This document shows positions 19,111-44,700 of a stretch of 64,000 bases of DNA, piece after piece. The notes beneath the pieces were generated by a model, which had not been told where the DNA came from, ran no database searches, and saw nothing but the letters and a program-made list of their open reading frames with translations. The position numbers were made by a program, and so were the translations under genes. Position 1 is the stretch's first letter. Each line of letters opens with the position of its first letter. The stretch comes from Branchiostoma floridae (Eukaryota > Chordata > Leptocardii > Amphioxiformes > Branchiostomatidae): assembly GCF_000003815.2 (NCBI RefSeq), contig NC_049991.1, positions 13,538,529 through 13,602,528 on the forward strand, written 5' to 3'.

Positions 19111-19785
19111 TTAGGAAATGGAAAATTTGATATCAAGGTCGTCACGTACAGACGAGAACATTTCATCTACTAGCTCCTGGTCTACCTCGTCCTCACACCT
19201 AAAGCCCATAACTGAAAACTCTGTCAACACCATGTTTCTCTGTGTCGCCAATGCCAACTGTTCAATGGCAGGTTTTGACACCGTGACGTGCCATGACTTA
19301 TCGTTTTGAGACAACATTGTGCTGACCCGTTCACGGCTAGCGCGTCTCCAGGGATCGTCAGCTTTGTGGAAATGTAAACATCTCAGCGTAGTGTTTGTGC
19401 TGACGACGTTTCCTAGGGCGCGGAATACTTCGTCAACGTTCTCTACTCCAGATAACGAAGCGTACCAACGGCCACCAGCTTTGGCTCTATACAGAATCAC
19501 AGAGAGTTTAACTGTGTGGAGTGTACTATTACCACTCAATGCAAGGATGGCAGCGGCCATTCTCTGGACAGACTCAGGGCTTTCCGTGAGGCAGTACTTA
19601 AATGTGAGATTCAGCTCATGCAAGACTGTGTTACATTGGAAGACAGATGCGATAGAGGGCCAAAGGCGATCCTGATCTGTCTTTTTAAGGCGATTGCCGC
19701 CGAGAGTTTGACTCTGGTTGCTTCCGGCTTGGCATGGTTGTTCGGTAGCTTCGTCTTCCTCACTTGAGGAATCCTCTTCGTTTCT
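19111..19785 (-). pseudogene. NLR-A, C-terminal part severed by transposon
   Basis: Encodes the C-terminal 222 codons of an NLR gene whose 5' part lies at 41738-45705. It shares long stretches with the end of NLR-B (47702 onward), such as DRLWPSIASVFQ/VRFWPSIASVFQ, LNLTFKYCLT, SPESVQRM, ADDPW and SVMGFRCEDE/SVSGFSCEDE. The repeated pattern N-x-x-L-x-x-L resembles divergent leucine-rich repeats. It starts in an acidic linker (RNEEDSSSEEDEATEQPC) next to the 8-bp target duplication at 19778-19785. An open frame continues upstream into the transposon end and offers a fortuitous ATG at 19824. The original start lies on the far side of the insertion. Confidence 0.85.
19778..19785. repeat. Target-site duplication, left (TCGTTTCT)
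   Basis: These eight bases abut the transposon end GGCAGATGTTC. The same eight bases follow the inverted end at 41738-41745. They also recur at 24276-24283 in the redundant copy. Confidence 0.85.
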
Positions 19786-20032
19786 GGCAGATGTTCTATG
19801 TAAGACATCACGAAATCGCCGCAAAATACAGCTGACCGCGCGGGTCGGTTACAACACCGACGCCGACGCCGTGTAAGACATTTTGCCGTGACCGTGTCGA
19901 GATCGTGTATGACATCACGAAGTCGACGCAAAATGCATCTAAGCCCGCGGGCCCGTTGTAACACCATCGCGGAAGCCATGCCAGGTATTTCGCCGCAACC
20001 TTGTCGGGATCGTGTGTGGCATCTAGCCCTGT
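19786..20032. mobile_element. Foldback-type transposon, left outer terminal domain
   Basis: GC-rich terminal segment beginning GGCAGATGTTCTATGTAAG. It contains about two diverged 107-bp tandem units starting CATCACGAA at 19806 and 19913, with a third partial start (CATCTAG) at 20020. The reverse complement of this segment forms the right ends at 37941-38196 and 41484-41737, so it is the outer part of a long terminal inverted repeat. It runs directly into the 104-bp satellite. Confidence 0.8.
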
Positions 20033-20772
20033 TGTAGGAATCCTACATAATCCTACAACTGGTGATGTAGGTATTTGTAGGCTGATTGGACATGAAGAAC
20101 AAACCATCCAAAATTCAACTGTAGGAAGTGTAGGATTGTAGGAATCCTACATAATCCTACAACTGGTGATGTAGGTATTTGTAGGCTGAGCGGATATGAA
20201 GAACAAACCATCCAAAATTCAACTGTAGGAAGTATAGGATTGTAGGAATCCTACAAATCCTACAAATGGTGATGTAGACATTTGTAGGCTGAGAGGACAT
20301 TGGGATCGGACCATCCAAAATTCAACTATAGGAAGTGTAGGATTGTAGGAATCCTACATAATCCTACAATTGGTGATGTAGGTATTTGTAGGCTGAGCGG
20401 ACACGAAGAACAAACCATCAGAAATTCAGCTGTAGGAAGTATAGGATTGTAGGAATCCTACATAATCCTACAATTGGTGATGTAGGTATTTGTAGGCTGA
20501 GCGGACATGAAGAACAAACCATTGGAAATTCAGCTGTAGGAAGTGTAGGATTGTAGGAATCCTACATATTCCTACAACTGGTGATGTAGATATTGTAGGC
20601 TGAGCGGACATGAAGAACAAACCATCCGAAATTCAGCTGTAGGAAGTGTAGGATTGTAGGAATCCTACATATCCTACAACTGGTGATGTAGACATTTGTA
20701 GGCTAAGAGGACACAGGGAGCGGCCCATCCCAAATTCAACTGTAGGAAGTGTAGGGTTGTAGGAATCCCCCA
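20033..20772 (+). repeat. 104-bp satellite array, forward, first contig
   Basis: About seven units of a 104-bp minisatellite that contains the palindrome GTAGGAATCCTAC, then GGTGATGTAG, TTTGTAGGCTGAG and a GAAGAACAAACCATC block. The array ends at an N gap and is therefore truncated by assembly. Unit 1 here is missing from the otherwise matching start of the array at 24531. Confidence 0.85.
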
Positions 20773-20872: not shown

Positions 20873-20892
20873 GCGATAGCCCCTTCAGGCCC

Positions 20893-22135
20893 CTACACAC
20901 CCGCCCTCGTGCGCGACTTCGACTTCATGACGACTAACCTGGCCGACAAGACAGCGCAGGTTGTGGACGCCCGGCCGCCTGGCAGGTTCAACGGGACAGA
21001 ACCAGAACCAAGGGCAGGTCAGTGCTGTGTAACAGTGGAGTTCAAGCACCGCCAAACGACCATTCCAAATGTCTTTCAGCCTTTTAGCGTCATCGGTTGC
21101 GTGTTTGGTTTGTGACCTGACGGCCCGGCTTCGAATCCCGAGAGTCAGCATGTTGTTTCTTTCTGTTTCTAGTCATTTCTTACAACTATCAGGCCTTAGG
21201 TGTTCCGGATATGTGAACACGTTGGTGCCTGAGGAAAACAGCTGACATATAATCAACACATACAATGTTCAGCATTGGAGAAGATAAAGTTTTAAAAATA
21301 CTTTCGTCCTTTTTTTCACACCCACTAATATATCTGTATGTCATATTCAACATTTCTCTTCGCTGAAGACCTGATGATGACAATTGTCTTGTTTTTACTT
21401 TTCCCTCTCCATAGACTGCGAACCTGGTCACATCCCGAACAGTCTGAACATGCCGTTCGGTAAGATCCTGGACCCGGAGAGTAAAACCGTCAAACCTCCG
21501 GAGAAACTTCGGGAAGTGTTCGCGGCTGCAGGTATGCACGTGCTCTAAGAAGTTCTTTCTGTCGAGGTAACATTAGCAAAAGCGGTATACATGCTTTTGT
21601 GTTTCTTATGTCTTTCTCACGAGTGAAACCTCTCTTATTGTATCTCTATTATTTATTTTAGGAATGTAGTCCATAACACCAGATTACAACAGGGCACAAA
21701 TGTGACTGCAGATACTGAGAACATATAACAACAGTTGTGTTGGATTATCATACGCCATTTGTAGACTGTTGTAGTGATGCCAGAAGTTAGTGAGTGTGAA
21801 GGAGTAATAATGCGTTTTATAATGGCATAGTGTGAGGGGAAGATGCGATTGAAAAGGGTATCTTCTTCATAATTACAAAGAGTAATCTGAAGGCAATGTT
21901 GTTACAATGAAACCATACTTAATCGTACTTCCACCCCAATCTTCCCACCTCACCAGGTGCAGACCTATCTGGCCCGATGGTAGCGACCTGTGGTTCAGGC
22001 ATGACGGCCTGCGGACTGGTGCTGGCCGCCTATCTGTGCGGGAAGGAAGACGTGCCGGTGTTCGATGGGGCATGGGTCGAGTGGTTCAAACGTGCCAAGC
22101 CGGAGAACATCATTTCTGAGGCTAAAAAAGAGTAG
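20893..22135 (+). pseudogene. Redundant partial copy of MPST (exons 4-6)
   Basis: Identical, as far as I compared, to 16395-17637 at a constant offset of 4498 bp, introns included. Exon 4 is cut at its 5' side (20893-21017); exons 5 (21415-21531) and 6 (21957-22135) are complete. It has no start codon, no exons 1-3 and begins exactly at a contig edge, so it is most likely an assembly duplicate and not a second gene. Confidence 0.8.
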
Positions 22136-23608
22136 CGGGGTCTCAAGATTCAACAGTCAGTCCCTCATGGGATGGGGTTGTAAGTGAGCCTCGTCATTGT
22201 GTTGCCAAACAAGAGTTGCAGTATCGTAAAGTATATTTTTCCTTGTAGCTGGCACACTGCGGTTATCATAACCAGGAATGTAGAAATGCACTATCACTTG
22301 CTTCAACAGGGTCAATTTTATTGGAACAGACTAGAAATAGGACAAGAAGAAAACAGACCTTTGTGCCTTTTTATAAAGATGGACTGGGGTGACATATCGA
22401 TTGAGCTTTGAAATATTTTTGACAGTTGATCGTCCAAATTTAACCGCAATAATTAAATGGTGCGGTTGCCGGAAAGATGGATGCGGCGAGCCAGTGAAGA
22501 TCCTGATCACTACTATCTCTGCGACCCAATCTCTGCTTTGAGAATAGCAAGATTGGTTAAATTCTTAATTTTCAAGTTGTATGACAAAAGAAACCTGTCT
22601 GGTGTACCATAACTACATGGACCAGCCCTCAAGTACTAGTACCTCACGTGACTCAAGTTAATGGTTGTATTCTATCTGTCAAAAGAAGAGGATAAGTTGG
22701 AACAAATTATCTAAAATCCACAGCGTGTAGAACGCGCACTTGACAAAGTTGCAAAGATGTAAATTTGCTTTCAAAGCGAGTCAAAATGCAATCTGATGTA
22801 CATGATCATTTGAGTTAAACTGAACAGATATATCTAAACAATTTCAGTCATTATTTAGTGACAACACTGTTTTATGTATCTAGAACTGTATACATACTCA
22901 CGATTCCTGTCAATGCACGTATTGTAACGACTAGTTTTTATCACTTTCCGTCACTTGTGAATGAATAAATCATATGCAAAACGATTTTCATGCTTGCATT
23001 TCCAGCCACACGTGCAGCTATAATACATGTCCATCACATATTTACACGTGTTGATATGATAATAAGGAGTTGCATTGAATTGAATGTGACCATACAGAAG
23101 TACAACTTTCTGTGTGATAAACCATTCGGGCATTCAATACCCAACGTGTAGCTCACTGTCTATGCTAATACTACTAATAATATTGACTTTAATACATTCA
23201 TCTTCACAATCCGCAGTGGTTTTCAAGCACATAGAAAACATTATGTAAATATAATGTCCTTGATGTACCAGAAATCTGGAATAGATATGCAAACGTACTA
23301 GTCACGCTGAGACATGAGTTCGAGATTCACTTTACATCTTGTAGGGGGATGGGCGCAGGAGATGCAATATCTTGTATACATTATGAACGTACGGAGACAT
23401 TTGGTGCAATGGTATTCAAATGAGAAACATTATAGTGTATTCGTTTTGTGTAATGCCTGGTTAAGCCAGGAACAGAGGGTGGTATGATTCCATCATATCT
23501 ATAACAATGCCACTAACAATAACACAAGATTAATAATCATCAAATATTCAAACTAAGTCGCTGTGATACGGGTACTGAAAGTCCATTTAGCGACTTTAGA
23601 TAGCGAGT

Positions 23609-24283
23609 TTAGGAAATGGAAAATTTGATATCAAGGTCGTCACGTACAGACGAGAACATTTCATCTACTAGCTCCTGGTCTACCTCGTCCTCACACCTAA
23701 AGCCCATAACTGAAAACTCTGTCAACACCATGTTTCTCTGTGTCGCCAATGCCAACTGTTCAATGGCAGGTTTTGACACCGTGACGTGCCATGACTTATC
23801 GTTTTGAGACAACATTGTGCTGACCCGTTCACGGCTAGCGCGTCTCCAGGGATCGTCAGCTTTGTGGAAATGTAAACATCTCAGCGTAGTGTTTGTGCTG
23901 ACGACGTTTCCTAGGGCGCGGAATACTTCGTCAACGTTCTCTACTCCAGATAACGAAGCGTACCAACGGCCACCAGCTTTGGCTCTATACAGAATCACAG
24001 AGAGTTTAACTGTGTGGAGTGTACTATTACCACTCAATGCAAGGATGGCAGCGGCCATTCTCTGGACAGACTCAGGGCTTTCCGTGAGGCAGTACTTAAA
24101 TGTGAGATTCAGCTCATGCAAGACTGTGTTACATTGGAAGACAGATGCGATAGAGGGCCAAAGGCGATCCTGATCTGTCTTTTTAAGGCGATTGCCGCCG
24201 AGAGTTTGACTCTGGTTGCTTCCGGCTTGGCATGGTTGTTCGGTAGCTTCGTCTTCCTCACTTGAGGAATCCTCTTCGTTTCT
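23609..24283 (-). pseudogene. Redundant copy of NLR-A C-terminal part
   Basis: Same sequence as 19111-19785 with the same 4498-bp offset and identical translation. It ends at the same transposon junction (element start 24284). Either an assembly duplicate or a very recent segmental duplication that also carried the MPST 3' exons. Confidence 0.8.
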
Positions 24284-24530
24284 GGCAGATGTTCTATGTA
24301 AGACATCACGAAATCGCCGCAAAATACAGCTGACCGCGCGGGTCGGTTACAACACCGACGCCGACGCCGTGTAAGACATTTTGCCGTGACCGTGTCGAGA
24401 TCGTGTATGACATCACGAAGTCGACGCAAAATGCATCTAAGCCCGCGGGCCCGTTGTAACACCATCGCGGAAGCCATGCCAGGTATTTCGCCGCAACCTT
24501 GTCGGGATCGTGTGTGGCATCTAGCCCTGT
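24284..24530. mobile_element. Left outer terminal domain, second copy
   Basis: Repeats 19786-20032. This copy is continuous with a long satellite array and with core copy 1, so it gives the best view of the element's left half. Confidence 0.8.
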
Positions 24531-27483
24531 TGTAGGAATCCTACATAATCCTACAACTGGTGATGTAGGTATTTGTAGGCTGAGCGGATATGAAGAACAA
24601 ACCATCCAAAATTCAACTGTAGGAAGTATAGGATTGTAGGAATCCTACAAATCCTACAAATGGTGATGTAGACATTTGTAGGCTGAGAGGACATTGGGAT
24701 CGGACCATCCAAAATTCAACTATAGGAAGTGTAGGATTGTAGGAATCCTACATAATCCTACAATTGGTGATGTAGGTTTTTGTAGGCTGAGCGGACACGA
24801 AGAACAAACCATCCGAAATTCAGCTGTAGGAAGTGTAGGATTGTAGGAATCCTACATAATCCTACAATTGGTGATGTAGGTATTTGTAGGCTGAGCGGAC
24901 ATGAAGAACAAACCATTGGAGATTCAGCTGTAGGAAGTATAGGATTGTAGGAATCCTACATATTCCTACAACTAGTGATGTAGGTATTTGTAGGCTGGGC
25001 GGACATGAAGAACAATCAATTCGAAATTCAGCTATAGGAAGTGTAGGGTTGTAGGAATCCTACATAATCCTATAACTGGTGATGTAGACATTTGTAGGCT
25101 GAGAGGGACATAGGGAGCGGGCCATCCAAAATTCCGCTGTAGGACGTGTAGGGTTGCGGGAATCCTACAGAATCCTACAACTGGTGATGTAGGTATTTGT
25201 AGGCTGAGCGGACACGAAGAACAAACCATCAGAAATTCAGCTGTAGGAAGTATAGGATTGTAGGAATCCTACATAATCCTACAATTGGTGATGTAGGTAT
25301 TTGTAGGCTGAGCGGACACGAAGAACAAACCATCATAAATTCAGCTGTAGGAAGTGTAGGATTGTAGGAATCCTACATAATCCTACAATTGGTGATGTAG
25401 GTATTTGTAGGCTGAGCGGACATGAAGAACAAACAATCTGAAATTCAGCTGTAGGAAGTGTAGGATTGTAGGAATCCTACATAATCCTACAACTGCTGAT
25501 GTAGACATTTGTAGGCTGAGAGGACATCGGGAGCGGACTATCCAAAATTCAACTGTAGGAAGTGTAGAATTGTAGGAATCCTACATAATCCTACAATTGG
25601 TGATGTAGGTATTTGTAGGCTGAGCGGACATGAAGAACAAACCATCCGAAATTCAGCTGTAGGAAGTGTAGGATTGTAGGAATCCTACATAATCCTACAA
25701 TTGGTGATGTAGGTATTTGTAGGCTGAGCGGACATGAAGAACAAACCATCAGAAATTCAGCTGTAGGAAGTGTAGGATTGTAGGAATCCTACATAATCCT
25801 ACAATTGGTGATGTAGACATTTGTAGGCTGAGCAGACACGAAGAACAAACCATCTGAAATTCAGCTGTAGGAAGTGTAGGACTGTAGGAATCCTACATAA
25901 TCCTACAATTGGTGATGTAGGTATTTGTAGGCTGAGCGGACATGAAGAACAAACCATCAGAAATTCAGCTGTAGGAAGTGTAGGACTGTAGGAATCCTAC
26001 ATAATCCTACAATTGGTGATGTAGGTATTTGTAGGCTGGGCGGACATGAAGAACAATCAATTCGAAATTCAGCTGTAGGAAGTGTAGGATTGTAGGAATC
26101 CTACATAATCCTACAATTGGTGATGTAGGTATTTGTAGGCTGAGCGGACATGAAGAACAAACCATCTGAAATTCAGCTGTAGAAAGTGTAGGATTGTAGG
26201 AATCCTACATAATCCTACAACTGGTGATGTAGACATTTGTAGGCTGAGAGGACATCGGGAGCGGACTATCCAAAATTCAACTGTAGGAAGTGTAGAATTG
26301 TAGGAATCCTACATAATCCTGAAATTGGTGATGTAGGTATTTGTAGGCTGAGCGGACATGAAGAACAAACCATCCGAAATTCAGCTGTAGGAAGTGTAGG
26401 ATTGTAAGAATCTTACATAATCCTACAATTGGTGATGTAGGTATTTGTAGGCTGACCGGACATGAAGAACAAACCATCAAAAATTCAGCTGTAGGAAGTG
26501 TAGGATTGTAGGAATCCTACATATTCCTACAACTGGTGATGTAGATATTGTAGGCTGAGCGGACATGAAGAACAAACCATCCGAAATTCAGCTGTAGGAA
26601 GTGTAAGATTGTAGGAATCCTACATATTCCTACAACTGGTGATGTAGACATTTGTAGGCTAAGATGACACAGGGAGCGGGCCATCCAAAATTCAACTGTA
26701 GGAAGTGTAGGGTTGTAGGAATCCTACATATTCCTACAACTGGTGATGTAGGTATTTGTAGGCTGGGCGGACATGAAGAACAATCAATTCAAAATTCAGC
26801 TGTAGGAAGTGTAGGGTTGTAGGAATCCTACATAATCCTACAATTCGTGACGTAGACAATTGTAGGCTGAGAGGGACATAGGGAGCGGGCCATCCAAAAT
26901 TCCGCTGTAGGACGTGTAGGGTTGCGGGAATCCTACAGAATCCTACAACTGGTGATGTAGGTATTTGTAGGCTGGGCGGACATGAAGAACAATCAATTCG
27001 AAATTCAGCTATAGGAAGTGTAGGATTGTAGGAATCCTACATAATCCTACAATTGGTGATGTAGGTATTTGTAGGCTGAGCGGACACGAAGAACAAACCA
27101 TCAGAAATTTAGCTGTAGGAAGTGTAGGATTGTAGGAATCCTACATAATCCTACAATTGGTGATGTAGGTATTTGTAGGCTGAGCAGACACGAAGAACAA
27201 ACCATCAGAAATTCAGCTGTAGGAAGTGTAGGACTGTAGGAATCCTACATAATCCTATAACTGGTGATGTAGACATTTGTAGGCTGAGAGGACATCGGGA
27301 GCGGACTATCCAAAATTCAACTGTAGGAAGTGTAGAATTGTAGGAATCCTACAGAATCCTACAATTGGTGATGTAGGTATTTGTAGGCTGAGCGCACATG
27401 AAGAACAAACCATCCGAAATTCAGCTGTAGGAAGTGTAGGATTGTAGGAATCCTACAAATTCTACAATTGTTGCTGTAGATGT
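24531..27483 (+). repeat. 104-bp satellite array, forward, about 28 units
   Basis: Uninterrupted array with a measured period of 104 bp (ATTCAGCTGTAGG at 25651 and 25755). Units fall into subtypes, for example AGCGGACATGAAGAACAAAC versus GAGAGGACATCGGGAGCGG. These recur in higher-order order, as expected from unequal exchange of blocks. The last unit ends in ATTCTACAATTGTTGCTGTA (from 27459) before unique sequence. Some subtype blocks recur almost unchanged several units apart. Confidence 0.9.
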
Positions 27484-30400
27484 GACAAGGGTATATCCAC
27501 TGTTCGTAAACTACAATGCCGGAATTCGACAGACTCCGCAGATCGCGCATTGTTCCTTAGCTGGCTATATTCTTCTGGCCGGCTTGCTCCTCTATTTGTT
27601 TCATTTCTACGATTTTCCCAGCGATCCGGAGTCTGGTAGAGACTACGTATTCATACCGTTTTGGCCCCCAAACTGTGTAGACTCCGGATCACTGATTTAT
27701 TGCTTAGATGATCTGAACTTCGAAGCTACTTTCTTTGTGCAGAAAATGAGCGGATTACTTTTATTGCCTTTCATCAAAGCGACAGTCGACAGACTCCGCA
27801 AATCGCGTACTGTTCCCTAGCCGGCTATATTCCTCTTAACGTGGGATTTTAAGCCGCATGAGTTCCGTTTTTAAGCCGCATGAGTTTTTAAGCCGCATGA
27901 GTTTTTAAGCTGCATGAGTTCCGTTTTGACATTTTTCGACATTTTGACTAATTTCTTCAATACGCGGCCGCACGCACAAGTCGCACCTCAAACTAATTTG
28001 AATCGTTTTAGAAAGTTTCACGTGCGGAGGCAAACGAAAATATACGCATAGTTCGCCTAATAGTTTTGGACATGCACAAAACTATCATTCGTACGCAGTT
28101 TGGTGGCCAAAACGTTATGGATATGCAATACAGTGGTCCCACGTCGGTCGATTGCGCTATGGAGACGCTACATGTTTGCGCTTTATATGCGGATATCGCG
28201 GTATTGCGAGTACATAGCGTTCTTACGTCGCAGACACAACGCACCATGAACGACCGTATAACGAATGCACACATAGATCACGATTTAGTACCGTACGTTC
28301 TGCGACCGGGTTGCGCATACTATGCGTACTGAAAGCGTGATCGACGCAGACTCCAGATTTGGAATAAATACGAAGGTGCATCTGAGTCCAGAAAAAAAAG
28401 ATCATCTCAAGATGCCAGATCTAGGCCAGGATGAATTTGTACCGGGGGCAGGGAGAGATGGTCACAACTTGCAGGACACCATCAATGCGACTGGTCCCAA
28501 CGGAGCCTCCAGGGAAGGGAAGATGCAGAGGAACCTGCTGATTAGCACTGGGTCAATTTGTGTAACACACGTGTCATTTTGTGTAACAGATATTAGACTT
28601 CATTTGCTGATAATAGTACTTTTTTGTGTGTAGAACCACATGATGTAAAAGTACAATATAGAGCCATATTACAACTTTGAAAGAGGGCGTAAGGTTTCAT
28701 AATTGTTTAATTTACGAGTACGTAAAGATCTTGAATACGTTTTGTGGTGTGTATGAGTGTGATTTTTATAGTAGTTGAAATAGTAAGATGATAGGGGAAA
28801 TCATTAAGGACAAAGTGAAAACAAACACAATCTTAACAGTGCATATATTTTTAAGGTAAATGATGGCCCACAGTACTGTAAAAGTACAGTGTTACTGCTT
28901 CACTGCTTCGCAAATAAATACAAAAAAGCTCTTCACTGTCTACTTATTAATGTTCTACTTGCACTGCCTGTAAAGAAAAGTATACGCAGTACAAAGTGTT
29001 CCTCTAACAAAAATACTCTATTGGCAATGCTCGCAAACAAAAGTATATGTAACAGAAACTGTTCCTCTGACACACCTGAAATGCAGTTAGCACCAGGTGC
29101 GTCAGGCATGCGGTCGGTGGACGTTGTGTGCGTCCGGAATACGCCCAACATTGTACCCCATACGCATCTATTCGCAGTACGGAAAATTTTTTTGCGCATT
29201 TCAGAAGCAATCATACGCTGAAGTCGTAATTCAAACGCCACATGTGCTCGACGTACAATTTAATTTATTCCAGAAAAATTCCAAATGTTGGGCATTCGGC
29301 CGCGTATTGACAAAATTTCATGCGGAAATCATGCGCACTTAAAAATATACGCAGGTGTGACCCCACCTAGGCCTTTAGCCTGCAGTCCAGACTACAAACT
29401 GCGTACGAATGACAGTTTTGTGCATGTCCAAAACTATCGAGCGTATACTGGGCGTATATTTTCGTTTGCCTACGTACTTGAAACTTTCTAAAAACGATTC
29501 AGATGCGTTTGAGGTGCGTCTTGTGCGTGCAGTCATGCGGCTTGAAAATATACGCAGGTGTGACCCCACCTTTATGCCCATTTTCCACTAGACGGCGATT
29601 GCGCTGCGCTCTGACTGCGACCTACATAAGATATGTTTAACATTCACTTTCATACTAGGTATATCATACAAAATGTAAAAGCGTGACCGAGAATACAACA
29701 AAACGCGCGAATAAAAAAATCGTTTCTTTTCTATACAATTTGTTGAGCGATCTGTCAAATTTTAGGTTGCAGACAGCGCGCGGAGAAAGGAGATACTCAA
29801 AGTTTTTCTACATGTATGGTCACACTAGCCTGATTTAATCGCGCTTCTTTATAGGCCCGTCGTACATTGCCCCGCGGGGAGGAGGCTACAAGCTCCGGAG
29901 TACGGAGTTAGCGTTACACAGACTATGGTCACATCAAGTAATTAGTATGAATGGCATCCTATTCAGACAGAAAAATTAATGAGATAGGGCGAACAAGAAC
30001 GAGATGGGTTAAAAAAAACAAGATGACTAGATTTTCAAAATAGTCACCATGAACCGTTATTGAAGTGACGAAACAGGGTAGCACATACAACAAATGAAAT
30101 CATTCATCCCTGCAGGTGGACCTCATCGGGCTTAAACTTCCCGGGGCGCTGATAGGAGATCGGGCGGGCCTTACTGTCCTGGTCCACCGAATAAACTGTC
30201 GACATGTCCTAGCTGCCCGATCCTGGCTGGCTCCCAGGGTAGTATTCAAGAAGTTAACTAGTACTTTTTAGTATAGCGTAGTGACTAGTGGTAGACGGTA
30301 TCACTTATCAAATTGGCAATACACTCATAACTACCAAAGTGTAGAGCCAATGAAAGTGGTACAACTTTTGCAACCGTACATCTATTAATTTCATTTCTAC

Positions 30401-32433: not shown

Positions 32434-35400
32434 TGACAAGGGTATATCCACTGTTCGTAAACTACAATGCCGGAATTCGACAGACTCCGCAGATCGCGTA
32501 TTGTTCCTTAGCTGGCTATATTCTTCTGGCCGGCTTGCTCCTCTATTTGTTTCATTTCTACGATTTTCCCAGCGATCCGGAGTCTGGTAGAGACTACGTA
32601 TTCATACCGTTTTGGCCCCCAAACTGTGTAGACTCCGGATCACTGATTTATTGCTTAGATGATCTGAACTTCGAAGCTACTTTCTTTGTGCAGAAAATGA
32701 GCGGATTACTTTTATTGCCTTTCATCAAAGCGACAGTCGACAGACTCCGCAAATCGCGTACTGTTCCCTAGCCGGCTATATTCCTCTTAACGTGGGATTT
32801 TAAGCCGCATGAGTTCCGTTTTTAAGCCGCATGAGTTTTTAAGCCGCATGAGTTTTTAAGCTGCATGAGTTCCGTTTTGACATTTTTCGACATTTTGACT
32901 AATTTCTTCAATACGCGGCCGCACGCACAAGTCGCACCTCAAACTAATTTGAATCGTTTTAGAAAGTTTCACGTGCGGAGGCAAACGAAAATATACGCAT
33001 AGTTCGCCTAATAGTTTTGGACATGCACAAAACTATCATTCGTACGCAGTTTGGTGGCCAAAACGTTATGGATATGCAATACAGTGGTCCCACGTCGGTC
33101 GATTGCGCTATGGAGACGCTACATGTTTGCGCTTTATATGCGGATATCGCGGTATTGCGAGTACATAGCGTTCTTACGTCGCAGACACAACGCACCATGA
33201 ACGACCGTATAACGAATGCACACATAGATCACGATTTAGTACCGTACGTTCTGCGACCGGGTTGCGCATACTATGCGTACTGATAGCGTGATCGACGCAG
33301 ACTCCAGATTTGGAATAAATACGAAGGTGCATCTGAGTCCAGAAAAAAAAAGATCATCTCAAGATGACAGATCCAGGCCAGGATGAATTTGTACCGGGGG
33401 CAGGGAGAGATGGTCACAACTTGCAGGACACCATCAATGCGACTGGTCCCAACGGAGCCTCCAGGGAAGGGAAGATGCAGAGGAACCTGCTGATTAGCAC
33501 TGGGTCAATTTGTGTAACACACGTGTCATTTTGTGTAACAGATATTAGACTTCATTTGCTGATAATAGTACTTTTTTGTGTGTAGAACCACATGATGTAA
33601 AAGTACAATATAGAGCCATATTACAACTTTGAAAGAGGGCGTAAGGTTTCATAATTGTTTAATTTACGAGTACGTAAAGATCTTGAATACGTTTTGTGGT
33701 GTGTATGAGTGTGATTTTTATAGTAGTTGAAATAGTAAGATGATAGGGGAAATCATTAAGGACAAAGTGAAAACAAACACAATCTTAACAGTGCATATAT
33801 TTTTAAGGTAAATGATGGCCCACAGTACTGTAAAAGTAGTGTTACTGCTTCACTGCTTCGCAAATAAATAAAAAAAAGCTCTTCACTGTCTACTTATTAA
33901 TGTTCTACTTGCACTGCCTGTAAAGAAAAGTATACGCAGTACAAAGTGTTCCTCTAACAAAAATACTCTATTGGCAATGCTCGCAAACAAAAGTATATGT
34001 AACAGAAACTGTTCCTCTGACACACCTGAAATGCAGTTAGCACCAGGTGCGTCAGGCATGCGGTCGGTGGACGTTGTGTGCGTCCGGAATACGCCCAACA
34101 TTGTACCCCATACGCATCTATTCGCAGTACGGAAAATTTTTTTGCGCATTTCAGAAGCAATCATACGCTGAAGTCGTAATTCAAACGCCACATGTGCTCG
34201 ACGTACAATTTAATTTATTCCAGAAAAATTCCAAATGTTGGGCATTCGGCCGCGTATTGACAAAATTTCATGCGGAAATCATGCGCACTTAAAAATATAC
34301 GCAGGTGTGACCCCACCTAGGCCTTTAGCCTGCAGTCCAGACTACAAACTGCGTACGAATGACAGTTTTGTGCATGTCCAAAACTATCGAGCGTATACTG
34401 GGCGTATATTTTCGTTTGCCTACGTACTTGAAACTTTCTAAAAACGATTCAGATGCGTTTGAGGTGCGTCTTGTGCGTGCAGTCATGCGGCTTGAAAATA
34501 TACGCAGGTGTGACCCCACCTTTATGCCCATTTTCCACTAGACGGCGATTGCGCTGCGCTCTGACTGCGACCTACATAAGATATGTTTAACATTCACTTT
34601 CATACTAGGTATATCATACAAAATGTAAAAGCGTGACCGAGAATACAACAAAACGCGCGAATAAAAAAATCGTTTCTTTTCTATACAATTTGTTGAGCGA
34701 TCTGTCAAATTTTAGGTTGCAGACAGCGCGCGGAGAAAGGAGATACTCAAAGTTTTTCTACATGTATGGTCACACTAGCCTGATTTAATCGCGCTTCTTT
34801 ATAGGCCCGTCGTACATTGCCCCGCGGGGAGGAGGCTACAAGCTCCGGAGTACGGAGTTAGCGTTACACAGACTATGGTCACATCAAGTAATTAGTATGA
34901 ATGGCATCCTATTCAGACAGAAAAATTAATGAGATAGGGCGAACAAGAACGAGATGGGTTAAAAAAAACAAGATGACTAGATTTTCAAAATAGTCACCAT
35001 GAACCGTTATTGAAGTGACGAAACAGGGTAGCACATACAACAAATGAAATCATTCATCCCTGCAGGTGGACCTCATCGGGCTTAAACTTCCCGGGGCGCT
35101 GATAGGAGATCGGGCGGGCCTTACTGTCCTGGTCCACCGAATAAACTGTCGACATGTCCTAGCTGCCCGATCCTGGCTGGCTCCCAGGGTAGTATTCAAG
35201 AAGTTAACTAGTACTTTTTAGTATAGCGTAGTGACTAGTGGTAGACGGTATCACTTATCAAATTGGCAATACACTCATAACTACCAAAGTGTAGAGCCAA
35301 TGAAAGTGGTACAACTTTTGCAACCGTACATCTATTAACCCTCAAGCACCCGACCTTTTTTTGCGACTAAAATGACCGAGTGGGGTCCAAACGGACCCCA

Positions 35401-36612
35401 AAATGCTATGTTCATAAAATCTCAGTACCATTTCTTATCGGCAATCATTGTATATACATTGCTTCGTCAATGTAAGAGGAAGATTTTGAGATGTTAGGGT
35501 ATTGCTAATTCCAACTCATTATCATAATTTATGCAAAGGTTCAGAAGGACCGCGTTTTGCACTAAACCTACTCCGACCAGATAGGGGAATTTTGAGGCCC
35601 TCAGCAACATTTATGTCGCATAACTCATGAACGGCTAGAGCTAAAGCTACGAAACTTGGTAATTTATCACAAAATATTGTTTGCAAAGGTTTTTGGTCAA
35701 AAAAGTAAATTTTTCATTTTTGAGGGTTGCCATGGCAACCATATTCTAACAGGCATATTTTTGCCAAAATTTGACAATTTCAATTTAAACAAGGTTTTCT
35801 TGGTAAACTACACCTGTTTTCTGACAACAATTAAATTCTATGAAATTCAATGTAATTTTCATGACTTAAAATTTATAATTTATGCTAATTTCATGACGTC
35901 ATTGGTCAAAATCTAAGATGGCCGCCCTGATTAGGCAAATTGATGTCATAATGTCGTCACATTACATGTTGATGACACAGAAATTTTGGTGATGATTTAG
36001 GTTTACATTCTTATTATTGTCTGAAAGTTTGGTAGTCATACTGTAAGTGGTTAAGGAGTTAGCCTCCAAAGTTTGTTTTAAAAACTGCACATTTTTGCTG
36101 GGGTCCGTTTGGACCCCAGAGGGACTGAACACAAACTTTCTTTATAATTTCCACATTATTGTACCAATCTTTGCGAAAACTTGGGAGAAGGTATAAGACA
36201 TATTGACTGACAAAGTCACGGAAGGATTTTTTCTTCAGATCAAAAATGTTCAAATGGCACTTCAAAATGTACGCCTGGGGTCCAAATGGACCCCACTCGG
36301 GTGTTTGAGGGTTAATTTCATTTCTACAACTACGGTCATGGCTAACATACTAGTGTCACTTCTTCTGCAAGGACAAGACAATCATTAGGGTACAACACAA
36401 CAATTATTATATTTTCCTATGTTGGTACTTTCTCTCCACGTTGACCTTCTCGGTAGTACAGTAAGTCAGAATTTCCTTTTTTCTCCTGAAATCTTGCGGA
36501 AACTTAATGAGTACGTGGATGTCATCCATATAATCTATTTACTGTGGCCTAATCCTGGGTATGGCACCGCCGTGTGAAAAGCCTCCGCATTGTTAGCCTT
36601 TTCCTGTCACAT
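32434..36612. mobile_element. Transposon core, copy 2 (with piggyBac insertion)
   Basis: Matches core copy 1 at about 99.8 percent. I saw about five substitutions, a 2-bp deletion, one A-run length change, and a 973-bp insertion at 35339-36311. It ends at an N gap at the position equivalent to 30685. The copies are thus distinct molecules: alleles or two insertions of the same family. Confidence 0.75.
35339..36311. mobile_element. Non-autonomous piggyBac-type element
   Basis: A 973-bp insertion flanked by TTAA on both sides (35335-35338, 36312-36315), with 15-bp TIRs CCCTCAAGCACCCGA and TCGGGTGTTTGAGGG. Core copy 1 has the unoccupied single TTAA at 30385-30388. TTAA duplication with CCC...GGG ends is the signature of the piggyBac superfamily. 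No transposase frame is present (the longest is 86 codons at 35656-35916). Three near-palindromes GGGGTCC-NAANN-GGACCCC-like occur at about 35385, 36100 and 36278. Confidence 0.9.
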
Positions 36613-37607
36613 NNNNNNNNNNNNNNNNNNNNNNNNNNNNNNNNNNNNNNNNNNNNNNNNNNNNNNNNNNNNNNNNNNNNNNNNNNNNNNNNNNNNNNNN
36701 NNNNNNNNNNNNNNNNNNNNNNNNNNNNNNNNNNNNNNNNNNNNNNNNNNNNNNNNNNNNNNNNNNNNNNNNNNNNNNNNNNNNNNNNNNNNNNNNNNNN
36801 NNNNNNNNNNNNNNNNNNNNNNNNNNNNNNNNNNNNNNNNNNNNNNNNNNNNNNNNNNNNNNNNNNNNNNNNNNNNNNNNNNNNNNNNNNNNNNNNNNNN
36901 NNNNNNNNNNNNNNNNNNNNNNNNNNNNNNNNNNNNNNNNNNNNNNNNNNNNNNNNNNNNNNNNNNNNNNNNNNNNNNNNNNNNNNNNNNNNNNNNNNNN
37001 NNNNNNNNNNNNNNNNNNNNNNNNNNNNNNNNNNNNNNNNNNNNNNNNNNNNNNNNNNNNNNNNNNNNNNNNNNNNNNNNNNNNNNNNNNNNNNNNNNNN
37101 NNNNNNNNNNNNNNNNNNNNNNNNNNNNNNNNNNNNNNNNNNNNNNNNNNNNNNNNNNNNNNNNNNNNNNNNNNNNNNNNNNNNNNNNNNNNNNNNNNNN
37201 NNNNNNNNNNNNNNNNNNNNNNNNNNNNNNNNNNNNNNNNNNNNNNNNNNNNNNNNNNNNNNNNNNNNNNNNNNNNNNNNNNNNNNNNNNNNNNNNNNNN
37301 NNNNNNNNNNNNNNNNNNNNNNNNNNNNNNNNNNNNNNNNNNNNNNNNNNNNNNNNNNNNNNNNNNNNNNNNNNNNNNNNNNNNNNNNNNNNNNNNNNNN
37401 NNNNNNNNNNNNNNNNNNNNNNNNNNNNNNNNNNNNNNNNNNNNNNNNNNNNNNNNNNNNNNNNNNNNNNNNNNNNNNNNNNNNNNNNNNNNNNNNNNNN
37501 NNNNNNNNNNNNNNNNNNNNNNNNNNNNNNNNNNNNNNNNNNNNNNNNNNNNNNNNNNNNNNNNNNNNNNNNNNNNNNNNNNNNNNNNNNNNNNNNNNNN
37601 NNNNNNN
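36613..37607. other. Assembly gap (995 N)
   Basis: It separates core copy 2 from the next reverse satellite contig, whose linkage to it is inferred only by the scaffold. Confidence 0.95.
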
Positions 37608-37940
37608 TACCTACATCACCAATTGTAGGATTATGTAGGATTCCTACAATCCTACCCTTCCTACAGTTGAATTCGGATGGTTTGTTCTTCATGTCCGCTC
37701 AGCCTACAAATACCTACATCACCAATTGTAGGAATATGTAGGATTCCTACAATCCTACACTTCCTACAGTTGAATTTCGGATGGTTTGTTCTTCATGTCC
37801 GCTCAGCCTACAAATACCTACATCACCAATGGTAGGATTATGTAGGATTCCTACAATCCTACACTTCCTACAGCTGAATTTTGGATGGTCCGCTCCCTGT
37901 GTCACTCTCAGACTACAAACATCTACAGCAACAATTGTAG
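37608..37940 (-). repeat. 104-bp satellite array, reverse, about 3 units
   Basis: Ends with ACATCTACAGCAACAATTGT (37919 onward), which is the reverse complement of the junction seen at 27459-27483, then AATTTTTTAAG and the GC-rich terminal domain. Confidence 0.85.
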
Positions 37941-38196
37941 AATTTTTTAAGCAGGGCTAGATGCCACACACGATCCCTACACGGTTGCGGCAAATGCCTG
38001 GCATGTCTTCCGCGATGGGCTTACAACGGGCCCGCGGGCTTAGATGCATTTTGCGACGATTTCGTGATGTCATACACGATCCTGACACGATCACGGCAAA
38101 ATGCCTTACACGGCGTCGGCGTCGGTGTTTTAACCGACCCGCGCGGTCAGCTGTATTTTGCGGCGATTTCGTGATGTCTTACATGGAACATCTGCC
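37941..38196. mobile_element. Transposon right outer domain, copy with foreign flank
   Basis: Inverted copy of the left terminal domain, ending CATGGAACATCTGCC at 38196. The flank (GGTATGAC) differs from the NLR-A target duplication, so this end belongs to another insertion of the family or to a misplaced contig. Confidence 0.75.
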
Positions 38197-38219
38197 GGTA
38201 TGACCTACCATTTGTAGCC

Positions 38220-38829
38220 ATGTCGGTCAACACAGAATCAGACAGACATGTTTCAAACATCAGCCACTCGTGCACACATGCCTGGGAAGATGTAACAGGT
38301 GTTAAGGTAGTACTGGGGGGAGACACTACTCTGCAGATTGTTCCCATGGGTGTAGACAAGTCCTACCAACCCCAAACCATTGCTGTAGTTGTGTCAGGTA
38401 TTATAATGGCAGATGATAATCACAGAAACATGTCGTATTCTGTTGGCCATGGCAGAAATATCAGCACATTTAGTCATGAAGAAATGCTGAATGTGACGTG
38501 TCATGTCGACACCGTCCGGGGGGAGACATACCGACATGTCTTCACCACACCCGTGTCCAGTACCCCTGATGGCACACAGTGTACAGGAAAGGTGATCCCG
38601 GTCACAAGAAATGCAACCACCATCATCATGACAGCCGAGGCCCCCCTAAACCAGACGATCACAGTCACAAATGAAACTGTGACAGCGCGACCGGTAAAAG
38701 AGCAAATCACATGTTACTGTTATGCATGCCTCATATACAGCATCACATTGTCAGCTGTAGTAGGGATTGAGCATATAGCGCTGCTAGTAGCATGTGCGTA
38801 TACCATCATAAAACTGCGTAGTTGTTCTC
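38220..38829 (+). CDS. Unrecognised membrane glycoprotein fragment
   Basis: An open frame of 203 codons that runs into an N gap. I do not recognise it. It has seven N-glycosylation sequons (NIS, NMS, NIS, NVT, NAT, NQT, NET), scattered cysteines, beta-strand-like alternation in the first 160 residues, and a hydrophobic stretch near residues 170-200 (ITLSAVVGIEHIALLVACAY) followed by basic residues KLRS. This fits a type I membrane protein exon that lacks its signal peptide. The frame stays open upstream of the ATG to the transposon end at 38196, so the exon's 5' side may have been cut by the insertion. Further exons would lie in the gap. Confidence 0.4.
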
Positions 38830-39361
38830 NNNNNNNNNNNNNNNNNNNNNNNNNNNNNNNNNNNNNNNNNNNNNNNNNNNNNNNNNNNNNNNNNNNNNNN
38901 NNNNNNNNNNNNNNNNNNNNNNNNNNNNNNNNNNNNNNNNNNNNNNNNNNNNNNNNNNNNNNNNNNNNNNNNNNNNNNNNNNNNNNNNNNNNNNNNNNNN
39001 NNNNNNNNNNNNNNNNNNNNNNNNNNNNNNNNNNNNNNNNNNNNNNNNNNNNNNNNNNNNNNNNNNNNNNNNNNNNNNNNNNNNNNNNNNNNNNNNNNNN
39101 NNNNNNNNNNNNNNNNNNNNNNNNNNNNNNNNNNNNNNNNNNNNNNNNNNNNNNNNNNNNNNNNNNNNNNNNNNNNNNNNNNNNNNNNNNNNNNNNNNNN
39201 NNNNNNNNNNNNNNNNNNNNNNNNNNNNNNNNNNNNNNNNNNNNNNNNNNNNNNNNNNNNNNNNNNNNNNNNNNNNNNNNNNNNNNNNNNNNNNNNNNNN
39301 NNNNNNNNNNNNNNNNNNNNNNNNNNNNNNNNNNNNNNNNNNNNNNNNNNNNNNNNNNNNN
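38830..39361. other. Assembly gap (532 N)
   Basis: The gap interrupts the glycoprotein-like frame. Confidence 0.95.
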
Positions 39362-40242
39362 CCTGTATAATAACCCCTCTGCTAACCGTCCCATCCATTA
39401 GCAAACATACAGTAGACATACGTGAAGTAAAAGCTGGAAACCTTCACGCCAAAACATGTCATTACCAGGCCTCAAGCCCCATCATTGTCAAATCTCAAGC
39501 CGACGTCTTGGAAAGACCACATGCACGGTCTAAGAACCTGTAAAAGAAGAGCAGGGAAGGGTTGGTAACGCCAAGTATAAAAGCTTCTTTTCTATTAAAT
39601 CTCCTTGGTAACGCTTAGTTTACCTTTATCCGCGGGTAACCTAACCTATATCCACCATATTTAGATTTTCGAAATATCAAGTTGATGGCCGGTGGTTTCA
39701 ATTGCAATATTTTCAAAACCTTGTCGTTACCCACTGAAATGGTTTATGATGCTTTATAACAGTCTTACGTAGGGGGAGAGACAAGCAATCTATTTCTGCT
39801 CCAGGTGAAGTGAACATGTAAATCATCTTTCATTCTCAAACATGAAGTTACCGACACATTATTTCATATGATGGCCCTCAATCTAACCCTGAGTTGCCCC
39901 AAAATTTGTGAGACCCCACCTAATGCCACATACCTGTGCCACATTTATCTGTATCTGGAGGCATTGAGCTTTTTAGATCTCTGGTCAGCTGGATAAGTCT
40001 GCACATATGTACGCAGGCAGGCACACAAACGCACACGTACACTCTCATGCATGCACGCACTGCAAGTACTTCGTCTGCTGTTATAACCTCTTTCTACTAG
40101 GACGGCGCTCTCATGATCACCGCTCTCTGTCTCTGACTTAAAATTTGACATATCGCTCAGCAAATTCTATAGAAAATGATAAACATTTTTTTAACACTTT
40201 GCACTTTACACAAATCTTCTCAGTCACACTATAACGTTTGAT
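39362..40242. other. Short contig, no gene recognised
   Basis: I find no gene and no resemblance to the surrounding transposon. A CA/CG-rich alternating stretch (CACACAAACGCACACGTACAC, shortened here) lies near 40020-40060. Placement rests on scaffolding only. Confidence 0.5.
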
Positions 40243-40342: not shown

Positions 40343-41483
40343 ACAGGATTCCTACAATCCTACACTTCCTACAGCTGAATTTCTGATGGTTTGTTCTTCA
40401 TGTCCGCTCAGCCTACAAATACCTACATCACCAATTGTAGGATTATGTAGGATTCCTACAGTCCTACACTTCCTACAGCTGAATTTCAGATGGTTTGTTC
40501 TTCGTGTCTGCTCAGCCTACAAATGTCTACATCACCAATTGTAGGATTATGTAGGATTCCTACAATCCTACACTTCCTACAGCTGAATTTCTGATGGTTT
40601 GTTCTTCATGTCCGCTCAGCCTACAAATACCTACATCACCAATTGTAGGATTATGTAGGATTCCTACAATCCTACACTTCCTACAGTTGAATTTCGGATG
40701 GTTTGTTCTTCATGTCCGCTAAGCCTACAAATACCTACATCACCAATTGTAGGATTATGTAGGATTCCTACAATCCTACACTTCCTACAGCTGAATTTCT
40801 GATGGTTTGTTCTTCATGTCCGCTCAGCCTACAAATACCTACATCACCAATTGTAGGATTATGTAGGATTCCTACAATCCTACACTTCCTACAGCTGAAT
40901 TTCGGATGGTTTGTTCTTCATGTCCGCTCAGCCTACAAATACCTACATCACCAATTGTAGGATTCTGTAGGATTCCTACAATCCTACACTTCATACAGTT
41001 CAAGTTTGGATGGTTTGTTCTTCATGTCCACTCAGCCTACAAATACCTACATCACCAATTGTAGGATTATGTAGGATTCCTACAATCCTACACTTCCTAC
41101 AGTTGAATTTCGGATGGTTTGTTCTTCATGTCCGCTCAGCCTACAAATACCTACATCACCAATTGTAGGATTGTGTAGGATTCCTACAACCCTACACTTC
41201 CTACAGTTGAATTTTGGATGGTCCGCTCCCTATATCCTCACACCCTACAAATGTCTACATCACCAATTGTAGGATTCTGTAGGATTCCTACAACCCTACG
41301 CTTCCTACAGCTGCATGTCGGATGGTTTGTTCTTCATGTCCGCTCAGCCTACATATACCTACATCACCAATTGTAGGATTATGTAGGATTCCTACAATCC
41401 TACACTTCCTACAGCTGAATTTTGGATGGTCCGCTCCCTGTGTCACTCTCAGACTACAAACATCTACAGCAACAATTGTAGAA
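40343..41483 (-). repeat. 104-bp satellite array, reverse, about 11 units
   Basis: Right-hand array of the element inserted in NLR-A. It ends in the ACATCTACAGCAACAATTGT junction (from 41460), as in the contig at 37608. Subtypes alternate, including the GGTCCGCTCCCTATATCCTC variant. Confidence 0.88.
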
Positions 41484-41737
41484 TTTTTTAAGCAGGGCTA
41501 GATGCCACACACGATCCCTACACGGTTGCGGCAAATGCCTGGCATGTCTTCCGCGAAGGTGTTACAACGGGCCCACGGGCTTAGATGCATTTTGCGACGA
41601 TTTCGTGATGTCATACACGATCCTGACACGATCACGGCAAAATGTCTTACACGGCGTCGGCGTCGGTGTTTTAACCGACCCGCGCGGTCAGCTGTATTTT
41701 GCGGCGATTTCGTGATGTCTTACATGGAACATCTGCC
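41484..41737. mobile_element. Transposon right outer domain inserted in NLR-A
   Basis: Inverted partner of 19786-20032, ending CATGGAACATCTGCC at 41737. It contains the same two diverged 107-bp units. It is followed by the target duplication TCGTTTCT (41738-41745) and then NLR-A coding sequence. Confidence 0.85.
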
Positions 41738-44700
41738 TCGTTTCTTGAAACACCCACATCAACATCGTCGTCAATGAATAATTCAAATGTCCTCAGGGTC
41801 CTATTTTGAGCCAGAGCATCCATCAGCCTGAAGATGTGAAACCGAGTTAACTCTCTGTAAGTGATAGGATTATCTCTGCCCTTTTGCTTATGATAAAAAG
41901 AAAAATGTAGCACAATGTGCCGAAGAACTTCAGTAACGGATATAATGTTAGCCAAGATACTTGGAAGGTTCTTGGTATGCCAAAAGACAGTGCACCTGTA
42001 CATCAACCTCAAGCTAAAGGTTTTGATGGTCTTTGACTCGCAGAGAAGCCTTCCAATCGACTCATTGAAAGCCCGGTCATCAACACTAGTTGGGACGTAA
42101 TCTTCCAGCTCATCTCCACCGTCTGAGTCTGGCTCGTAGTAGTATTCTTCTGGGTGATGTTGTAACGCTCCATAGATCCAAAGCTTGAATGTGCTGAGTG
42201 TGCTCGACGAAGCTAAGAGGTCAAAAGGCAGGCGAAGCTTGCGAAGCGGCGCACCAGAAAATATGGACTCGTGCAAGTACGACTGCAACGAGGCGAAGCT
42301 TACTAACAAGTGGTCTTCATCGAGAGAAAGCGAACCAGGGAAATCGAAATCAGACTCCTCCATGTGCAGCTTCAGTATAATAGAGGACAGAGGTGTGCAA
42401 ATGGACATGGCACGAAATAGTTTGGTCATCAGTACGAAGTCTCTGTCACTAGTTGTAAGCCCGAGGATTTGGGCGAAGAAGACACGAATAGACTGCGCCC
42501 TTTCCAATACGTCCCAGAGAGGAACTCCTCCATATGCAGCTTCCTGGTCCTCGATATTCAAGCCAGGAAATATCATAACATCTAGTTCAAGCTTTGTTAT
42601 TGAGAGATGTGTCACAAAGCGGTTTCTTACCAATGCTGAAGCCACCTCTTTCGTCATGGGATGTGTCGATAGGTTTATATCAACTCGGGTTACACCTGGA
42701 CACTCTGCGTTTAAAAGCAAAGGAAGACCAAAACGCCAGATGTCACCATGCACATATGCAAAGAGATCTGAAACATCAATAGTCTTCGGAAAACAGGGGT
42801 AAAGCACTCTCACTAGATCTAGGTCACTTTCACTCTCAATCAGACATTTGATGCAGAACGCAAACAGAGCTCTGAACTGGTCTTTTGCATCACTGTCGCC
42901 ACTACTTTGCAACGCCAGGAGACGGCTACGGAAGCATTCAAATACTGCTCTTGCGCGAGTCTTCAAGGTGCCAACGAGAAACAAGCAAACTTGGTGCAAG
43001 TTATCGTCTTCCAACGAACGCAAGACACGTTCTTTAAAAGTAGGCACGGTTTCAGACACATTTGCCCGTAGTCGCCTGGCTCGTGGTTCCACCAGAAAAA
43101 GCTGGTGTGGGATGAACTCAAACATGCCAGTTGACACAGAGCCACTTAAGCCCTCCTGGACAGCGGCATCTGTAGACAGGAAAACTGCAGCAAAGTACTC
43201 TTGGAAGGTTTTGTGCAGAAACGACCAAACAAAAGAAGCTTCGATGCGGGATGCTCCCAAGTCTTTTGTGAGAAATCCAAGTTTGAACATCTCCATGCCC
43301 CTGGTCACGGACTGAAAATCAGCCTCATCAAAGTTTACCTCATTACGGAGAAGGCCTTCCCAGGCAACTCGGCCCATTTCTACAAGCTGAGTAAATACAT
43401 TGCCAGGGATCTCTGTGCCAGCAACATTTATGTCGTTCTTGCTGCAGTAACGCTTCACAATGCAGAGAACCAAGCTAGAGAATAAACCTGTGATAGTCGA
43501 TGGAAGTGAACCGTCATTGTCTTCCCAAACAATACAAAGTAACATGGTGTTGAGGGGATTTGTGGCAAGTTCAAGTAAGTTTTTGTCTCTAGCTATCCGC
43601 GATCCAAGACTGTTTGCGAGGTGAGGGCGCTCACTAAAGTATTTGTGAATGTATTCTTGGCTATTCGCCTCTGTGTAGCCTGTGATATTGCAATGTAACG
43701 GACAACCCTTTAGGTCTGCAGTACACTCGTGAGGACGGGAGGTAACTACTACAGTAGCATCGGTCATGACCCTTTGCTGTATCAGCTTTATCACGTCAGA
43801 AGACTGTCTAACCTGAGGTTTCAACTCATCCAAGCCATCTAGGATGAACAGCACTTTGGGCTGATTGGCGGCTTGTCTCATGTATGACCATAGACCCTCC
43901 CTGTCTATGTCTGTGTCCTCGGGCAAGAGCTGGTCGAAAACGGCATCTTTGGCGTTACCATCAAAGTAACGCAGTTGCAAGAGGAAAGCGAATTCGAATT
44001 GTTGGAATGAATCACTGGACCAGTCGCACGCCAACTTACGACACTGGATACTTTTACCTATGCCCGGTGGACCCTCAATCCTTATTCTCTTTGGCTTCTC
44101 CGTTTTCTCATCCTGAAATACCCCATGATCTTCAATCTTAATAATCTCTCCATTTCTATTTACATCAAATATCTGCTCTATCCTGATAAGCCCGGGGGCC
44201 CCCCCAGAAACTCGAGGGTTACTACCAAACCGTTTCCCTGTCTCCCCCCTCCCTGGCCGTCTGAATGGTAGGTCCCTATCTGCCCTGTCCTTCCTGACTA
44301 TTTGAAGGTTTGTGTACACATCCTTCAGTTGAAGATGGAGGTCGTCGAACCAGGGAAGAGGCTGGAACTCCCCCAGCTTCGTCCTGTAGAGCCGTTTTAG
44401 ATGCCACTTCAGCCACTCTAGCTGCTCTGTGGAGGGAAGCTGAGCCTGAGGTCTGCGCACTGAAAAGACAAATAAACACAATGAATTGTTGTAAAATGTA
44501 CATATAATTAGTATAAATTTTAGTTCAATAAGAGCACTACTGCTTGGATCTTATTGGGCGTCTCTAATGGACGATATCATGTTAATAAAATAATGGATAG
44601 GCTCAGATATACATGTGCAATATATAGAAGTGTTCATAGTGCAAGTCAATGATTGGTCTTCACATCCATAAATATGACAGCTTGCATAAGAGAACAGCAT

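What the first reader, a model, noticed from the sequence alone, without database searches (positions are those of the whole stretch)
19778..41745. A giant transposon splits an NLR immune-receptor exon, proven by an 8-bp target duplication
The C-terminal codons of NLR-A (19111-19785) and its NACHT part (41738-45705) are both bounded by TCGTTTCT and then by inverted copies of GGCAGATGTTC. Removing the element plus one TSD copy gives exon lengths totalling 3822 nt, exactly 1274 codons in frame, and the junction falls in an acidic linker matching NLR-B. So roughly 22 kb of scaffold (less if contigs are redundant) is a single-locus insertion that inactivated or remodelled an innate immune receptor.
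Basis: partly seen in the sequence, partly recalled or inferred. Interest (0 to 1): 0.88.

Follow-up and report, generated by a model that had tools for sequence, protein, structure and literature searches.

The report
Foldback transposon inside an immune-receptor exon
A roughly 8-10 kb non-coding jumping gene with long, tandemly repeated inverted ends sits in the middle of a coding exon of an innate immune receptor gene, probably cutting off the end of the protein, while the claimed 22 kb length appears to be a genome-assembly error that mixes in part of a second copy from another gene.

Summary
The core observation is right. NLR-A's coding exon is interrupted by an inverted-repeat element with a perfect 8-bp target duplication (TCGTTTCT, 19778 and 41738). 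Joining the flanks gives one stop-free 1,159-codon frame, with homology to paralogue NLR-B on both sides of the junction.

The size claim is wrong. The 22 kb is four scaffold pieces. Piece 1 overlaps piece 2 (16377-20768 = 20878-25269) and repeats the left end. Piece 3 (31970-40242) is part of a different copy: its right end (38196) is followed by an LRR-receptor-like exon, not by the NLR duplication, and its probable left half is at C2:386,341. The NLR-A insertion is about 8-10 kb (8,981 bp if the sequenced parts abut).

The element is a foldback-type DNA transposon: ~246-bp termini, inverted arrays of a 104-bp repeat, a 3.3-kb non-coding middle. 85 near-exact termini occur in the genome (reversed-pattern control 0). 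13 of 24 paired copies have an exact 8-bp duplication. No transposase was found with five Pfam families.

At least five copies lie in coding exons, three of them in NLR or LRR genes, but enrichment over background is not established. It is a new member of a known kind.

The parts
41738..44550 (-). NLR-A upstream coding part (NACHT, PF05729), ends at target duplication
   Evidence: stop-free frame; Pfam NACHT 2.4e-20
41738..41745 (.). target-site duplication copy (TCGTTTCT)
40343..41737 (.). right end of the NLR-A insertion: 104-bp repeat array (40345-41485) plus ~246-bp terminus
24284..31869 (.). left part of the NLR-A insertion: terminus 24284-24529, 28-copy 104-bp array 24530-27479, middle 27480-30805, inverted array 30806-31869
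24276..24283 (.). second (redundant) copy of the left target duplication
19786..20772 (.). redundant copy of the left end, from the end of scaffold piece 1
19778..19785 (.). target-site duplication copy (TCGTTTCT)
19111..19785 (-). NLR-A C-terminal coding part (224 codons plus stop, duplication included)
   Evidence: genome matches are itself, its redundant copy in the window and NLR-B at 79%
20878..25269 (.). redundant overlap with 16377-20768 (assembly artefact)
31970..40242 (.). probably misplaced scaffold piece: part of a different copy of the same family (array, middle, right end at 38196) with LRR-receptor-like coding sequence after it
35339..36311 (.). 973-bp inverted-end insert flanked by TTAA, nested in the misplaced copy and absent from the NLR-A copy
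38197..39401 (+). 3' part of an LRR-receptor-like exon (interrupted by a gap) following the misplaced right end; probable left half ends at C2:386340
47702..51333 (-). NLR-B paralogue, uninterrupted at the matching site (read in two overlapping frames)

Best explanation
A non-autonomous foldback-type DNA transposon moved by cut-and-paste into the coding exon of NLR-A, in an acidic linker beyond the NACHT region, and duplicated 8 bp of target. It carries ~246-bp termini, long inverted arrays of a 104-bp repeat and a 3.3-kb middle without a recognised transposase, so it was presumably moved by a transposase encoded elsewhere (inferred). Read-through from the upstream exon adds 22 residues (the first from a codon shared with the duplication) and then stops, so about 220 C-terminal residues are probably lost (inferred). 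The apparent 22 kb arises because the assembly repeats a contig end and inserts part of a second copy that sits in an LRR-receptor-like exon.
For: Perfect 8-bp duplication and in-frame empty site. Paralogue NLR-B matches on both sides of the site. Family: 85 termini, control 0. Of 24 pairs (paired by place and orientation; the window pair added, one re-paired), duplications are 8/8 in 13, 7/8 in 5, 6/8 in 2, and 5/8 or fewer in 4. Inverted 104-bp arrays. No frame over 137 codons in the middle. No match of the KDZ, IS1595, PF21787, MULE or hAT genome searches falls between paired ends (compared by eye). Misassembly: dovetail overlap and a foreign flank at 38197. The C2 left flank plus the window right flank give a stop-free 374-residue frame with a 7/8 duplication, GGCATGAC/GGTATGAC.
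Against: The two NLR-A flanks are not linked by continuous sequence. The right arrays of pieces 2 and 4 do not overlap above 95.5% identity. Four of 24 pairs lack a good duplication. The NLR-B alignment does not cover the linker at the junction under the stricter scoring. The C2/window pairing has one mismatch, the C2 sequence leaves the terminus after 47 bases and enters a gap after base 78, and that gap (at least 2.18 kb) hides what follows. No expression data. Transposase unidentified.
Confidence: 0.85

Rival explanations
1. The element is spliced out as a new intron (introner-like), so NLR-A still makes a near-normal protein. The termini carry a donor-like CAT|GTAAGA at +14.
For: The +14 donor-like site is in four of five exonic copies; NLR-A (four combinations) and C12a (two) have in-frame stop-free solutions with weaker sites. 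A frame crosses the junction in all five empty sites. Introners with an 8-bp duplication that add residues are described in PMC9860276 (passages seen).
Against: With the +14 donor no in-frame, stop-free product arises in any of the five cases; C3a, C5a and the C2/piece-3 copy have no in-frame solution at all at the thresholds used. In C5a the crossing frame stops about 49 codons after the junction. Introners listed in that paper have median lengths of 30-654 nt, whereas this is ~9 kb.
Confidence: 0.07
2. The whole 22 kb is a real nested or tandem insertion at one locus (two elements plus a duplicated NLR tail).
For: It is how the assembly is drawn. Both left ends carry the same duplication.
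Against: The overlap is identical outside the repeat array apart from a poly-A at its start, runs from the start of piece 2 to the end of piece 1, and lies at a 100-bp gap. The 38196 end is flanked by a receptor-like gene whose probable left half is on C2.
Confidence: 0.06
3. NLR-A N- and C-terminal parts come from two different NLR genes that each carry an element, and were joined by the assembler.
For: The assembly here appears to join different copies of this element.
Against: 8/8 duplication, in-frame join, and the paralogue has both parts in the same order. The genome searches with the two halves find no other NLR of this type apart from NLR-B.
Confidence: 0.04

Closest known systems
Tetris, foldback transposon of Drosophila virilis (PMC4079207, passages seen)
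   Same: Flanking terminal domain, then arrays of long tandem repeats in inverted orientation, then a non-coding middle; 8-9 bp duplications in its complete copies; no autonomous copy found
   Different: 104-bp instead of ~220-bp repeats; other termini and host; up to 28 repeats on one arm here; no sequence comparison made
Galileo / Foldback of Drosophila (search listings and abstract openings only)
   Different: Galileo is placed in the P superfamily by its transposase; no PF21787 match (a P-type domain by my recall) lies between paired ends of this family
Sea urchin foldback elements (mention seen in PMC4079207; the TU name and 8-bp duplication are recalled)
   Same: Deuterostome foldback elements
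   Different: No sequence compared
Tm1 Mutator/Foldback elements of root-knot nematodes (PMC3169594, passages)
   Same: Composite tandem-repeat termini, 8-10 bp duplications
   Different: 13-15 bp repeats, mostly 9-bp duplications, a transposase-encoding member known
Introners (PMC9860276, passages)
   Same: Elements with inverted ends in exons; duplications of 3-9 bp in some families
   Different: No consistent splice solution here, far larger

Membership tests
DNA (cut-and-paste) transposon | terminal inverted repeats at both ends, repeated at many loci | tested here: met
   85 termini with at most 3 mismatches, control 0; arms 94.3% identical over 246 bp
DNA (cut-and-paste) transposon | fixed-length target-site duplication | tested here: met
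   8/8 in 13 of 24 pairs, 7/8 in 5, 6/8 in 2, 5/8 or fewer in 4
Foldback-type element | long inverted termini made of tandem repeats | tested here: met
   104-bp arrays, 28.4 copies left, 10.2 and 11.0 copies on the right pieces, in inverted orientation
Foldback-type element | middle domain variable, often non-coding | tested here: met
   longest frame in the window middle 137 codons; middles only partly shared among the copies fetched
P-type / hAT / MULE / Merlin (IS1595) / KDZ superfamily | matching transposase inside a copy | tested here: not met
   genome matches of PF21787 (3), PF05699 (33), PF10551 (27), PF12762 (3), PF18758 (12) all lie outside paired ends (compared by eye); six-frame first-look searches, and several copies contain gaps, so absence is not proven
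Introner | clean removal by splicing in frame | tested here: inconclusive
   weak-site in-frame solutions in 2 of 5 exonic cases, none with the shared +14 donor; no RNA data
NLR (NACHT) receptor | NACHT domain | tested here: met
   PF05729 2.4e-20; no Pfam match at E <= 0.1 in the C-terminal 224 residues

The most novel reading that the evidence does not exclude
A recently active foldback transposon family inserts preferentially into coding exons of expanded, redundant receptor-like families (NLR, LRR) and acts as a switch generating presence/absence variation in innate immune receptors.
Probability: 0.12. Interest if true: 0.65.

Novelty: new member of a known kind. Interest (0 to 1): 0.33.

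Why it matters
It is a concrete, testable case of a transposon breaking an innate receptor in what I take to be amphioxus, whose NACHT families are expanded (PMC2575513, passages). It defines a foldback family for which the held papers give no hit ('amphioxus' + 'foldback' + 'transposon': 0 papers). It also points to an error in the reference sequence: a gene on C13 and probably one on C2 are scrambled by copies of the same repeat, and gene models made there are likely to be wrong.

Tried and rejected
22 kb single insertion: rejected. Transposase search by five Pfam families: nothing between paired ends. Two 8.7-8.9 kb copies with flanks (L040, L041) and 9.9 kb of a 15.4-kb copy (L096) were read for ORFs: frames of 203 codons or fewer, apart from a 1,211-codon LINE frame (RVT_1) in L096. 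Introner idea: no shared solution. Exon preference: a stop-free frame of 186 codons or more crosses the junction in 4 of the 20 pairs with a duplication of at least 6/8; the next longest is 121. Background coverage by frames of at least 180 codons is 0 of 7,836 non-N bases in 12 random 992-bp stretches (12.8% at a threshold of 150), 11.5% in outer flanks of fetched loci and 17% in the window outside the element. P(4 or more of 20) therefore runs from 0.016 at 5% to 0.45 at 17%. One search used n=21 by mistake; one search repeats it with 20. The subset with GGCAGATGTTC-type termini (4 of 9) was chosen afterwards. Dating by arm divergence was not attempted, because arms need not be identical at insertion.

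Dropped before counts: of 83 termini at 60 named loci, 37 loci have only one end under one name and are not in the pair counts, except that the window's two ends were joined by hand and C5:1649644 was re-paired from 1656509 to 1657873 because the latter matched. Two of the 85 termini were left out: 24284 in the window (redundant) and C13:9783688 (flank N). Degenerate ends seen only (right end of L018, both ends of L019) were not used. The C5e pair, counted as 2/8, shares 6 bases if shifted.

Full report
Setting. The window is C13:13538529-13602528 of a 513-Mb genome in 431 contigs. Size and gene content suggest an amphioxus; that is my inference, and no call names the species.

The insertion. 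TCGTTTCT lies at 19778-19785 and 41738-41745, each abutting an inverted copy of GGCAGATGTTC. On the minus strand the upstream part (44550-41738) holds a NACHT domain (2.4e-20). The downstream part (19785-19111) ends in a stop. Joined with one duplication they read 1,159 codons without a stop. The neighbouring paralogue NLR-B aligns on both sides of the junction at residue ~938 and has no element there. With permissive scoring the stretches are 586-950 (50%) and 937-1158 (63%); with stricter scoring 579-926 (50%) and 970-1158 (71%), which leaves the acidic linker at the junction unaligned. Genome searches with either half find only NLR-A itself (the C-terminal half twice, both in the window and both with the element) and NLR-B. 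So no uninterrupted NLR-A allele was found in the assembly.

What the 22 kb really is. Gaps cut the region into pieces. Piece 1 (to 20772) and piece 2 (20873-31869) overlap over 16377-20768 / 20878-25269. The overlap has 87 differences: 3 in a poly-A at its start and 84 from 20086 on, in the minisatellite; between these it is identical. It is therefore best read as a redundant contig end, not a second insertion. Piece 3 (31970-40242) shares the middle of the element with piece 2 (99.7% over 2,910 bp, then 100% over 301 bp) but carries an extra 973-bp TTAA-flanked insert. It ends at a right terminus (38196) followed by GGTATGAC, not TCGTTTCT. What follows is the 3' part of an LRR gene with a hydrophobic, membrane-like stretch (judged by eye): paralogue L030 has a 781-codon frame with the junction at residue 357 and LRR_8 at 3.3e-48. 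A matching 5' part ends at a left terminus on C2:386341 with GGCATGAC. The two halves join to a stop-free 374-residue frame. On C2 the first 47 bases match the terminus, then the sequence departs and enters a gap after base 78; none of the 30 genome matches to this 3' part lies near there. So piece 3 probably belongs to C2. The NLR-A element is then piece 2 from 24284 plus piece 4 up to 41737: 7,586 + 1,395 = 8,981 bp if they abut, about 0.8 kb less if the arrays overlap in their best register (95.5% over 784 bp), more if repeats are missing. Paired ends elsewhere span from about 0.3 kb (C1a) to about 20 kb (C235a), with C12a (which holds a 2.8-kb gap) and C3a near 10.3 and 10.8 kb.

The element family. 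From the end inwards: ~246 bp of terminus (arms 94.3% identical); a 104-bp tandem repeat (28.4 copies left; 10.2 and 11.0 on the right pieces); and a middle of 3.3 kb whose longest frame is 137 codons and which contains a ~1-kb high-copy repeat near 28411-29368. The 32-base terminal pattern occurs 85 times, reversed control 0. Of 24 pairs, 13 have 8/8 duplications, 5 have 7/8, 2 have 6/8 and 4 have 5/8 or fewer (0.0004 exact matches expected). None of the matches to five transposase families lies between paired ends. This architecture is that of foldback elements such as Tetris (passages of PMC4079207). Membership in a transposase superfamily stays open.

Exonic copies. Besides NLR-A, empty-site frames cross the junction in C12a (200 codons; NHL 9.3e-7 on the right side, only 0.027 on the left), C3a (287 codons; FAM198 profile 2-102 on the left and 109-188 on the right) and C5a (186 codons; LRR on the left; the crossing frame stops about 49 codons after the junction, and LRRs go on in another frame). 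The C2/piece-3 gene is a fifth case, and the end at C12:17473452 abuts an Ephrin_rec_like exon. Whether this exceeds background is not settled. The mostly open flanking frames fit recent, possibly heterozygous insertions, which I could not test.

Mechanism. Shown: inverted termini, 8-bp duplications, exonic site, open frames on both sides. Inferred: movement by a transposase in trans, and loss of about 220 C-terminal residues by read-through to the stop at 41671-41673. Splicing out as an intron was tested on five exonic cases. The best donor (+14) never gives an in-frame stop-free product. NLR-A (four combinations) and C12a (two) have weak-site solutions, the other three none. Splicing is thus unlikely as a family trait but not excluded for NLR-A.

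Novelty. Foldback transposons and exonic insertions are known. I saw no description of this family in my paper searches (listings only), but Repbase-type libraries were not available. The most useful result is the corrected structure.

Noticed in passing
47702-51333: NLR-B reads in two overlapping frames (49555-51333 and 47702-49654): a frameshift or an assembly error.
   Followed up: no
9142-11700: Three near-identical (98.8-99.8%) tandem copies of a ~990-bp unit, the third partial.
   Followed up: no
35339-36311: 973-bp element with inverted ends flanked by TTAA, in piece 3 but not in piece 2; piggyBac-like by its TTAA (recalled).
   Followed up: partly
28411-29368: About 1-kb stretch of the middle matches a very high-copy repeat (4434 first-look candidates for the query, 40 scored, mostly ~89% identity).
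   Followed up: partly
19797 and 24295: The left terminus has T at its 12th base, where 81 of 83 termini have C. On the gene strand this makes a new AG 10 bases from the element's end. It gives no in-frame product with the +14 donor.
   Followed up: partly
L061 / L062 (C12:17473452 and C12:17524112): Two ends 50.6 kb apart with a 7/8 duplication (CAGAGGTT/CAGAGGTG), not counted among the pairs; the left one abuts an Ephrin_rec_like exon. Could be a very large copy, chance or a scaffolding effect.
   Followed up: no
L096:6181-9813: A 1,211-codon LINE reverse-transcriptase frame nested in the C15 copy.
   Followed up: partly
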